From contig DAHUXR010000041.1 in NCBI GenBank assembly GCA_027307045.1, forward strand, positions 1 to 37,786: 37,786 nt of DNA, read 5' to 3'. Positions 18,181 through 20,218 of the stretch are shown here, one piece after another (the stretch's first letter is position 1; each line of letters begins with the position of its first letter). A model generated the notes under the pieces. The model did no database searches. It was given only the letters and a program-made list of their open reading frames with translations, and had not been told where the DNA came from. Origin of the DNA: Acidobacteriaceae bacterium. GTDB taxonomy: Bacteria > Acidobacteriota > Terriglobia > Terriglobales > Acidobacteriaceae. A program made the translations under genes and the position numbers.

Positions 18181-18636
18181 TTAGTTTACCGGCTCTGGAT
18201 TTTGAAGATCCAGCAACTTATAGTCGCCGCGCATAATACCATCACGAATCATCTTGGCCGACCAGCCTTTGCGGGACTGGCGATAAGAATAAAGCGATTC
18301 CTGCATGCAAGTGCCGCAGTTGGCGCCATGTGTGCTCTCAAAGCAGCTGCGCAGGCTGGTGTGGCCGTGGTTGCGGTCACAATAGCAATAGCAAGGCATC
18401 TGATACAGAACGGAACCGGCTTTGGCAGCGGCTTTATACGAAGCCACCTGCGCGGGCGCGATCATGCCCTGGTCCGCGAGTTGCTTTTGCGTGAGCACCG
18501 GCGGCAGCGTTGTGCCGGCCTTGGGAGGCGCGGGATGGAACGCCGGAACCTCAGCGGCCTGATTCACAAACTGAGCATGCGTCATGCCAGCGGCAAGAAG
18601 GACAGTGAGGACACTCAAAAAATGCTTCATATCCAC
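18181..18636 (-). CDS. CYCXC-family exported protein, cysteine form
   Basis: The 151-residue product has a signal peptide (MKHFLSVLTVLLAAGMTHA) and a Cys-rich core about residues 82-112: MPCYCYCDRNHGHTSLRSCF, then HGANCGTCMQE. The CYCxC cluster with a following CF and CxxC is the signature of the acidobacterial CYCXC family, related to PCYCGC-type lipoproteins; some members of that family carry selenocysteine. Here the third position of the motif is a normal Cys codon and the frame is unbroken. A periplasmic metal-binding or redox role is plausible. It lies 1.3 kb from the TGA-containing redox gene at 19700. The start could be two codons later (MKHF). Confidence 0.75.
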   Translation of the reverse strand: MDMKHFLSVLTVLLAAGMTHAQFVNQAAEVPAFHPAPPKAGTTLPPVLTQKQLADQGMIAPAQVASYKAAAKAGSVLYQMPCYCYCDRNHGHTSLRSCFESTHGANCGTCMQESLYSYRQSRKGWSAKMIRDGIMRGDYKLLDLQNPEPVN

Positions 18637-18741: not shown

Positions 18742-19323
18742 GTGGAGACGCCACAACAGGAAACAATCCAGGTACAGACGGAGCCGCCGGCGCCCGCGCC
18801 GGAATCCAGCGGTCTGCGAACCTTGCGCACCTCAATGCGGGACCTGTTCTTTTCTGTGCTGGTTTCATTCTTCATCATCCTGTTTGTCTATCAACCGGTG
18901 AAAGTTGAAGGCGGCAGCATGGAGCCCGGCCTGGAAGACCAGGAGCGCATTGTCATCAACAAGCTGGTGTACCGGCTGGAGAGTATTGAACGCGGCGATA
19001 TTATCGTGTTCCGCTATCCGCGCGACACGCGCAAGAGCTTTATCAAACGGGTGATTGGGCTTCCCGGCGACCACATCCGCATTGTTTACGGGCACGTTTA
19101 CGTGAATGATGAACAGCTTTCCGAGCCTTATGTGCCTTCAGACTACCTTGATGCCCGCTCCTACTCAGACATTGTGGTGCCCAGCAATTCATACTTCGTG
19201 CTGGGCGACCATCGCTCCATGTCCAACGACAGCCGCGAATTCGGCCCGGTGATGCGCAGCTATATCTACGGCAAAGCCGTCTTGGGTTATTGGCCCATGG
19301 AGAAGCTGGGAATGGTGCACTGA
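18742..19323 (+). CDS. lepB: Signal peptidase I
   Basis: LepB removes signal peptides from exported proteins at the outer face of the inner membrane. The 193-residue protein starts with GTG, preceded by GGGAG about ten bases upstream. It has a short Pro/Glu-rich cytoplasmic tail, one TM helix (about 35-52, FFSVLVSFFIILFVYQPV), then the catalytic Ser in VEGGSMEPGL and catalytic Lys in SFIKRVIGLPGDHI. The box VLGDHRSMSNDSREFGPV is the family E motif. Length and domain order are those of compact Gram-negative and Gram-positive-like LepB. It is followed 19 bases later by a small membrane protein. Confidence 0.95.
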   Translation: METPQQETIQVQTEPPAPAPESSGLRTLRTSMRDLFFSVLVSFFIILFVYQPVKVEGGSMEPGLEDQERIVINKLVYRLESIERGDIIVFRYPRDTRKSFIKRVIGLPGDHIRIVYGHVYVNDEQLSEPYVPSDYLDARSYSDIVVPSNSYFVLGDHRSMSNDSREFGPVMRSYIYGKAVLGYWPMEKLGMVH

Positions 19324-19342: not shown

Positions 19343-19672
19343 ATGTTGGAGAAGTACATGAGTCGTCCCACTAATCCGTTACCTGTAAGAGTGAATGCAA
19401 TAGAGCCTAAGTGGGGACACGCACTGCGCGTCTGGTGGGCCTGGCAGTGGCGCATAGCCGCGTTCGGGGTGCTGATTGAGTTATTTATTCGGCTTCTCGG
19501 TTATGCTCATTGCATCCTGGGTTTAACCGTGCAAACGTTGACCACGGTGCGCATTGGCCTGGCTCTCGTTTTTTCAGGGCTGGTTGGGGTGTATCTTTTC
19601 AAACTCATTCTTGATTCGGATTTTGGCAGCTTCCGTGTATGCATCATTTCCAAAGATTTTCCACCACAATGA
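19343..19672 (+). CDS. Small membrane protein of unknown function
   Basis: The 109-residue product has two hydrophobic stretches: about 38-60 (AAFGVLIELFIRLLGYAHCI) and about 67-90 (GLALVFSGLVGVYLFKLIL). The N-terminus is basic and Trp-rich (WGHALRVWWAWQWR). I recognise no family. It starts 19 bases after lepB with GGGGTGATTACAAG upstream, and a second Met five codons in (MSRPTNPLP) is an alternative start. It precedes the selenoprotein candidate by 27 bases, so lepB, this gene and the redox gene may be one transcript. Confidence 0.58.
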   Translation: MLEKYMSRPTNPLPVRVNAIEPKWGHALRVWWAWQWRIAAFGVLIELFIRLLGYAHCILGLTVQTLTTVRIGLALVFSGLVGVYLFKLILDSDFGSFRVCIISKDFPPQ

Positions 19673-19699: not shown

Positions 19700-20218
19700 G
19701 TGTTTTCAAGATTTAAAGTAGCTTTGATCCGCAAGTTTGCCCGCAAACGCCTGGGCAAAGACATTGCGCCGCTCGCAACAATCGCCACGCACCCTGACGT
19801 GCTGATTCCTTACACCAAGTTCAGCATGGCTCTGGAGAAGACCAACCTTGTCCCGGCCAAGCTGAAAGTTCTGGGACAGATTCGCGCGGCCAAGCTGGTG
19901 GAATGTCCTTTTTGAATCGACATTAATTCTGCCGGGGGCAGAATCGCAGGATTAAGTGAAGATCAGATCCGCAACATGAACTGGTACGCGGAAAGCGACC
20001 TTTTCTCTCCCGATGAAAAGCTTGTGCTCGAGATGGCGGACGCTATCACGGCGACACCGGCGAAAGTGACACCGGAACTGCGCAAGCGGCTGCAACAGCG
20101 ATTCTCAACGCCGCAACTGGTGGAACTGGCCGCGGCAATTGCGTGGGAGAATTACCGGGCGCGATCGAATAGAGTGTTTGGCTTTGGGAGCGAGGGGTTT
20201 TACAAGGACAAGGGATAG
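19700..20218 (+). CDS. AhpD/carboxymuconolactone-decarboxylase-like protein with in-frame TGA (probable selenocysteine)
   Basis: A GTG at 19700 opens a frame that runs to a TAG at 20216-20218 with a single internal TGA at 19913-19915. Before it the product reads THPDVLIPYTKFSMALEKTN and QIRAAKLVECPF. After it, in the same frame, IDINSAGGRIAGLSEDQIRN, then NWYAESDLFSPDEKLVLEMA and LVELAAAIAWENYRARSNRV. AhpD-like members have CPFC-IDI at this point, so TGA stands exactly at the second Cys of the CxxC redox centre: CPF-U. The total is 172 residues, the family's usual length. A perfect 8-bp stem with a GGG loop follows 10 bases after the TGA. Known biology: AhpD-like proteins reduce peroxidase partners through CxxC, and CxxU forms exist. 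Alternative: a simple TGC/TGT to TGA nonsense mutation. Confidence 0.8.
19916..19944 (+). promoter_or_regulatory. Candidate bacterial SECIS element
   Basis: Directly after the TGA at 19913-19915, ATTCTGCC (19926-19933) and GGCAGAAT (19937-19944) form an uninterrupted 8-bp stem closed by a GGG loop (19934-19936). The loop begins 18 bases after the TGA and its first residues are G. Bacterial SECIS elements lie just 3' of the UGA inside the coding region, with a guanine-bearing apical loop at about this distance, where SelB binds. The codons of the stem still encode family-typical residues (NSAGGRI). Confidence 0.72.

What the first reader, a model, noticed from the sequence alone, without database searches (positions are those of the whole stretch)
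19700..20218. Candidate selenoprotein: AhpD/CMD-like thiol oxidoreductase with CPF-U active site
Seen: one uninterrupted frame with a single TGA placed exactly at the second Cys of the family's CPFC redox motif, with full family-like sequence on both sides. An 8-bp perfect stem with a GGG loop sits 18 bases past the TGA. Established: bacterial Sec insertion needs a hairpin immediately 3' of the UGA, and AhpD-like CxxU proteins are known in principle. Inference: this is a real Sec codon in an acidobacterium, sitting with lepB and a small membrane gene, and would be annotated as two fragments by standard pipelines.
Basis: partly seen in the sequence, partly recalled or inferred. Interest (0 to 1): 0.9.

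Follow-up and report, generated by a model that had tools for sequence, protein, structure and literature searches.

The report
Acidobacterial AhpD-like selenoprotein gene
A soil acidobacterium reads one stop-like codon as the rare amino acid selenocysteine in a small redox enzyme; the call is well supported by relatives, and it is a new branch of an already known kind of selenoprotein.

Summary
Window 19700-20218 (+) is one frame with a single in-frame TGA (19913-19915) at the second Cys of a CPFC motif. An 8-bp hairpin (19926-19944) follows, with its GGG loop 18 nt after the TGA. The genome carries tRNA-Sec, selA, selB and selD. All 9 genus genomes searched, own included, have the TGA. The stretch after the TGA is under stronger purifying selection than that before it. 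The hairpin persists with compensatory changes and far above synonymous recoding. Of 90 superfamily rows, 61 of 65 TGA rows but 2 of 25 Cys rows have a hairpin of 6 or more pairs. It is a selenoprotein by comparative evidence; no experiment was possible. It is a CMD/AhpD-superfamily protein (PF02627), near but far below the cut-off of NCBIfam NF053654 'YciW-related (seleno)protein'. CxxU AhpD/CMD selenoproteins have been in print since 2005, so this is a new branch of a known kind. Added here: a clade across Acidobacteriota, Sec and Cys versions near ECF41/SigJ-type sigma genes in Actinomycetota, and lepB linkage in the genus. The substrate is unknown.

The parts
19700..20218 (+). AhpD/CMD-like selenoprotein gene, 172 aa with Sec72 (GTG start, TAG stop)
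   Evidence: (PF02627, 27.1 bits over gathering 23)
19904..19915 (+). CPFU redox motif (C69-P-F-U72); TGA Sec codon at 19913-19915
   Evidence: the C69 and U72 columns are invariant (Sec read as Cys) in the 38 rows of A1
19926..19944 (+). bacterial SECIS hairpin: 8-bp stem, GGG apical loop starting 18 nt after TGA
18742..19323 (+). lepB-like signal peptidase I (PF10502); nearest shared upstream gene, same strand, in 7 of 7 genus relatives with flanks (gap -1 to 510 bp; 376 bp in the window)
19343..19672 (+). 109-aa ORF (two hydrophobic stretches by eye), matched only in this genome of 90 searched; probably not part of the conserved unit

Best explanation
The gene encodes a CMD/AhpD-superfamily thiol-redox protein in which UGA at codon 72 is decoded as selenocysteine. 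SHOWN by comparison: a single in-frame TGA at the second position of C-P-F-U; coding constraint on both sides; a conserved hairpin with a G-rich apical loop 18 nt downstream, kept by compensatory and codon-choice constraint; Cys in place of Sec in relatives, mostly without the hairpin; selA, selB, selC and selD in the genome. INFERRED from established bacterial Sec biology: SelB bound to Sec-tRNA and to the hairpin delivers Sec at the UGA. INFERRED from the family: Cys69 and Sec72 form a selenenylsulfide couple, with the Sec selenolate (at the position of the AhpD nucleophile Cys, recalled as Cys133 of M. tuberculosis AhpD) reducing a peroxide or another oxidised or electrophilic substrate and Cys69 resolving it. 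The substrate and the electron donor are unknown.
For: tRNA-Sec 73.9 bits (gathering 47), also called by ARAGORN; selB 367.3 bits with its neighbours in the frame; selA 541.6 bits; selD 364.8 bits, itself with one TGA. 9 of 9 genus genomes searched carry the ortholog with 1 TGA (G002 split over two contigs), and 28 of 150 genomes searched, own included, have a match at E <= 1.4e-18 with 1 TGA. Of those 28, 25 have selB over the cut-off; the other three are 81, 84 and 54% complete. Uncorrected pN/pS is 0.08-0.18 after the TGA and 0.15-0.31 before it, lower after in 7 of 7 comparisons. Hairpin on 39 TGA rows: 85.6% paired cells, 24 cells changed on both sides versus 6.9 shuffled (0 of 500), slid controls 35-52% paired. 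Synonymous recoding of 16 rows chosen by me, window register: 7.13 pairs observed, null 4.15 +/- 0.29, maximum 5.38, 0 of 20000. Arg at +9 is AGA in 30 of 33 against 7 of 133 Arg codons in four window genes. TGA rows 61 of 65 with 6 or more pairs, Cys rows 2 of 25. Three Cys rows group with a Sec row in the tree.
Against: No expression, selenium-labelling or mass-spectrometry data. Longer RNA pieces of the window row do not fold into the SECIS as the minimum-energy structure. Four of 65 TGA rows have fewer than 6 pairs (L032 3, L084 4, L080 5, L086 5), and one Cys row (L062) has 9. Only 12 of 39 TGA rows reach p<0.05 singly. selB is common in the group (110 of 150), so co-occurrence is weak support; in a second set 8 of 11 genomes with the TGA form had selB over the cut-off (G529 of the Rubrobacter MAG, G537 and G541 did not), and so did 4 of 4 with the Cys form. 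The peroxidase role is untested, and the AhpD relay His at +4 (recalled) is Asn here; over 47 CP(F/V)U-x-D rows it is Asn 22, Gly 18, His 6, Val 1.
Confidence: 0.95

Rival explanations
1. The TGA is a real stop: the locus is a pseudogene or two separate small genes.
For: Table-11 ORF calling splits it into 71 aa and 80 aa.
Against: Same TGA in 9 of 9 genus genomes searched and in other phyla; purifying selection is stronger after the TGA than before; selA, selB, selC and selD are present.
Confidence: 0.02
2. The TGA is read through as Trp or Cys by an altered code or by leaky suppression, and the hairpin only reflects conserved amino acids.
For: The S-A-x-G-R segment is conserved in protein, and the single-row recoding test for the window is p = 0.08.
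Against: The pooled recoding test is 0 of 20000, and the codons AGA and TCT are favoured where the stem needs them; 23 of 25 Cys rows lack a hairpin of six pairs; lepB next door ends at TGA.
Confidence: 0.02
3. It is a selenoprotein, but its work is not peroxide reduction: e.g. a disulfide reductase/oxidase or a reductive dehalogenase of the CMD fold.
For: The A1 profile matches the CMD-type debrominase Bmp8 (6ohi, 2.2e-15, profile 8-162) more strongly than the AhpD-named entries 6k40, 6e8l and 5dik; the relay His is mostly missing.
Against: Uncharacterised CMD proteins score better still (2gmy, 2.4e-20); sequence similarity does not fix the substrate.
Confidence: 0.35

Closest known systems
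NF053654 GroundWater_YciW, 'YciW-related (seleno)protein' (NCBIfam 20.0)
   Same: Same superfamily; Sec at the same motif position in its best-scoring A1 row (L044, CVFUQDINAA, 250 bits); a hairpin at about the same offset there. All 38 A1 members hit the model at E<=0.001.
   Different: The window protein scores 91 bits against a cut-off of 310; motif CPFU-x-D rather than CVFUQDINAA; separate clade.
TIGR01926 / COG2128 AhpD-like CxxU selenoproteins (PMC1088965, PMC2398784, PMC13188914; passages)
   Same: CxxU motif in a CMD-type protein. The own genome also has one, CEYULASHT, 91.6 bits over the cut-off 81.8.
   Different: Window protein 22.8 bits, below the cut-off; 31% identical over 131 residues to the own paralogue, and +4 residue Asn instead of His.
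CMD-like PF02627 CxxU selenoprotein (4 sequences in the Sargasso Sea set; PMC1088965 passages)
   Same: Same Pfam family and motif form.
   Different: The published sequences could not be compared here, so the window clade may be the same one.
ECF41-linked carboxymuconolactone decarboxylases ('COE', PMC3426412, passages)
   Same: CMD proteins with CxxC; in Actinomycetota both Sec and Cys relatives of the window protein have a SigJ/ECF41-like gene in the held flank.
   Different: No SigJ-like gene was found by tblastn with one query in the held flanks (about 3 kb or less) of the window gene or its Acidobacteriota relatives. The word selenoprotein occurs 0 times in PMC3426412.

Membership tests
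Bacterial selenoprotein | In-frame UGA flanked by conserved coding sequence, Cys in homologues | tested here: met
Bacterial selenoprotein | bSECIS: stem-loop just after UGA, G in the first two loop positions, 16-37 nt from UGA to loop (criteria from passages of PMC13188914) | tested here: met
   18 nt, loop GGG
Bacterial selenoprotein | selA, selB, selC and selD in the genome | tested here: met
Bacterial selenoprotein | Sec physically present in the protein | not testable with these tools
   needs mass spectrometry or 75Se labelling
CMD superfamily PF02627 | Pfam gathering score | tested here: met
   27.1 bits against 23
NF053654 YciW-related (seleno)protein | curated cut-off 310 bits | tested here: not met
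   91 bits; best A1 row, L044, 250 bits
TIGR01926 peroxidase-related enzyme | curated cut-off 81.8 bits | tested here: not met
   22.8 bits
TIGR00778 AhpD core domain | curated cut-off 27.8 bits | tested here: not met
   17.4 bits for the window protein; 21 of 38 A1 members match at E<=0.001, best 1.3e-13, so some relatives probably pass
AhpD alkylhydroperoxidase | relay His four residues after the second Cys (recalled) | tested here: not met
   Asn in the window row
AhpD alkylhydroperoxidase | peroxidase activity | not testable with these tools
   enzymology needed
AhpD-like fold | predicted structure matches CMD fold | not tested

The most novel reading that the evidence does not exclude
A phylum-crossing clade of Sec-containing CMD enzymes (CPFU-x-D), near NF053654, that mostly lacks the AhpD relay His and performs a selenium-dependent reaction other than peroxide reduction, for instance reductive dehalogenation or organic disulfide/electrophile reduction; in Actinomycetota it would be a target of an ECF41 sigma factor, which would make selenium use part of the ECF41 response.
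Probability: 0.15. Interest if true: 0.65.

Novelty: new member of a known kind. Interest (0 to 1): 0.42.

Why it matters
It adds a well-supported selenoprotein clade that standard ORF calling splits in two, in soil Acidobacteriota, a phylum credited with 3 selenoprotein families and 4 selenoproteins in the 2006 survey (PMC1794560, passage). Sec and Cys versions in one family, with and without the SECIS, make a natural comparison for why Sec is kept. The ECF41 neighbourhood in Actinomycetota suggests a testable regulatory link; a full-text search for 'selenocysteine' with 'ECF41' listed one paper, on biosafety by its title and abstract (listing only).

Tried and rejected
Pseudogene and altered-code readings were rejected. 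Co-occurrence with selB was tried as a test: 25 of 28 family genomes against 110 of 150 overall, too common to count for much; in a second set 8 of 11 TGA-form and 4 of 4 Cys-form genomes had selB over the cut-off. Single-row energy folding was inconclusive. Structure prediction gave no model, so no fold search was made. Deeper neighbourhoods: 20 proteins, nearly all from the 83 neighbour ORFs listed, were scanned, with no partner shared by several Acidobacteriota lineages among them beyond thiolase/acyl-CoA dehydrogenase genes at the Cys rows. selB directly upstream was seen in G058. A plasmid search gave only distant hits, at most 31.6% identity in the rows listed. Rows dropped before the count: repeat fetches of the same genes, the near-copy L057, weak hits L045, L046, L066 and L067, loci of other genes, and 16 of 106 rows at 115 bits or less.

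Full report
WHAT IS THERE. Window 19700-20218 (+) reads as 172 residues with one TGA, at codon 72, inside LVECPF-U-IDINSAGG. Standard ORF calling gives two fragments. The protein passes the Pfam CMD cut-off (27.1 bits against 23). An ATG stands 71 codons before the TGA in 7 of 7 genus relatives read; the window has GTG there.

SEC MACHINERY. The genome has tRNA-Sec (73.9 bits, also ARAGORN), selB (367.3 bits with its neighbours in the frame), selA (541.6 bits) and selD (364.8 bits, itself with a TGA).

CONSERVATION OF THE TGA. Of 150 genomes searched, own included, all 9 of the genus have the gene with one TGA (G002 split over contigs), and 28 have a match at E <= 1.4e-18 with one TGA. Of the 28, 25 have selB over the cut-off, against 110 of 150 overall. 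A scan of named genome contigs gave 21 loci: five (L047-L051) repeat genus genes already counted, two (L066, L067) were too weak to use, and of the other 14, 11 have TGA (Acidobacteriota, an Actinomycetota MAG, a Rubrobacter MAG and a deltaproteobacterial MAG placed in Myxococcota) and 3 have TGC or TGT (L059, L061, L062). A phylum-wide sample found 37 of 396 genomes at E <= 1e-25, a set that includes the paralogous CEYU clade. In the phylum of G531 (titled Actinomycetota) 33 of 296 genomes matched at E <= 1e-35, with both TGA and Cys forms.

CODING AFTER THE TGA. Against 7 genus relatives uncorrected pN/pS is 0.08-0.18 after the TGA and 0.15-0.31 before it, lower after in each of the 7.

THE HAIRPIN. 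On 39 ungapped TGA rows the window's stem is paired in 85.6% of cells. There are 24 cells with changes on both sides (shuffles 6.9, 0 of 500 as high), and slid controls pair 35-52%. Related rows inflate shuffle tests, so a codon test was added. For 16 rows chosen by me to be diverse, the window register holds 7.13 pairs on average against 4.15 +/- 0.29 for synonymous recodings, none of 20000 as high. Codon usage for that test came from four window genes and was applied to all rows. The row-by-row test is weaker: 12 of 39 TGA rows reach p<0.05, the window row has p=0.08, and L032 has no hairpin. Ser at +5 is TCT in 32 of 38 and Arg at +9 is AGA in 30 of 33, against 17 of 123 Ser and 7 of 133 Arg codons in the four genes. 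L021, L022 and L025 use a shifted stem within the genus. Over 90 superfamily rows above 115 bits, 61 of 65 TGA rows and 2 of 25 Cys rows have a hairpin of at least 6 pairs; means 6.8 and 3.1. The TGA exceptions are L032, L080, L084 and L086; the Cys exceptions are L062 and L093. The TGA rows there include the sister and paralogous clades; of 47 CP(F/V)U-x-D rows 45 have 6 or more pairs. Alone, the 35-nt window piece folds into the hairpin at -10.1 kcal/mol (z -2.08), but a 53-nt piece prefers another fold.

FAMILY. Three clades with Sec appear: the window's clade (39 rows, 36 Sec and 3 Cys, support 95/91); a CVFUQDINAA-type clade, whose row L044 scores 250 bits for NF053654; and a CEYULASHT-type clade, whose own-genome row L072 passes TIGR01926. 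The own genome thus has a member of the first and of the third, 31% identical over 131 residues. The three Cys rows (L059, L061, L062; the last titled Pyrinomonadaceae) group with a Sec row, L084 (100/99), whose hairpin is poor (4 pairs; its match also spans one TAA). So Sec and Cys have interchanged there; the direction is not shown. With the Actinomycetota rows added the tree needs 7 changes. None of the four window-clade members whose NCBIfam scores were shown (window, L028, L056, L065) passes any model's cut-off in the rows printed; one search gives only tallies for the 38 A1 members, and some of them probably pass the TIGR00778 AhpD core-domain model (best E 1.3e-13).

NEIGHBOURS. In the genus, lepB is the nearest shared gene upstream on the same strand in 7 of 7 relatives with flanks; glmU, the TPR gene and the PCYCGC-motif gene are kept in 7 of 7 and the CofD gene was matched in 6 of 7. 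The gap from lepB to the Sec gene is -1, 6, 7, 24, 64, 146 and 510 bp. In G058 selB lies directly upstream. A SigJ/ECF41-like gene lies in the held flank of 21 of 106 loci examined, 7 Sec and 14 Cys forms, each from the Actinomycetota searches; two of those genes pass TIGR02957. ECF41 genes are reported to lie beside CMD-type genes and to control them (PMC3426412, passages). No such gene was seen near the window gene.

LITERATURE. AhpD-like and CMD-domain CxxU selenoproteins were reported in 2005 (PMC1088965), AhpD-like ones again in 2006 and 2008 (PMC1794560, PMC2398784), and both stand in a 2026 review (PMC13188914); passages only were seen. PMC9312934 and PMC12013277 were seen in passages too. 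Full-text searches (listings, with passages of seven of the papers) showed no report of this clade; subscription papers are mostly not in that library, and PMC12013261 was not held. The clade may still be one already catalogued, since published accessions could not be compared.

VERDICT. A real selenoprotein gene by comparative evidence, 0.95. New clade as far as these searches reach, known kind. The enzymatic reaction is inferred from the family only.

Noticed in passing
L072:1493-2038 (-) (G000:C109): A second AhpD-like selenoprotein candidate in the same genome, CEYULASHT, over the TIGR01926 cut-off; the ORFs beside it look by eye like a STAS antagonist and an RsbW-like kinase.
   Followed up: partly
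L069 (G000:C69:269-1195): selD of this genome itself carries one in-frame TGA.
   Followed up: no
L111 / L029 (G058:C158): selB lies directly upstream of the Sec gene on the same strand.
   Followed up: no
L060, L063, L121-L125: SigJ/ECF41-like sigma gene near the Sec form of this family in Actinomycetota, and near 14 Cys forms too.
   Followed up: partly
window 19343-19672 (+): 109-aa hydrophobic ORF between lepB and the Sec gene with no match in 89 other genomes searched.
   Followed up: partly
window 18181-18636 (-): PCYCGC-motif protein of unknown function (PF13798), conserved next to lepB in 7 of 7 genus relatives with flanks.
   Followed up: no
L021, L022, L025: Genus members whose hairpin is shifted a few bases 3' relative to the window's, with a different stem but a G in the first two loop positions.
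   Followed up: no
L084 (G528:C180:4807-5322): A TGA row sister to the three Cys rows with a poor hairpin (4 pairs) and a further TAA in the matched stretch: possibly a Sec/Cys transition or a decaying copy.
   Followed up: no
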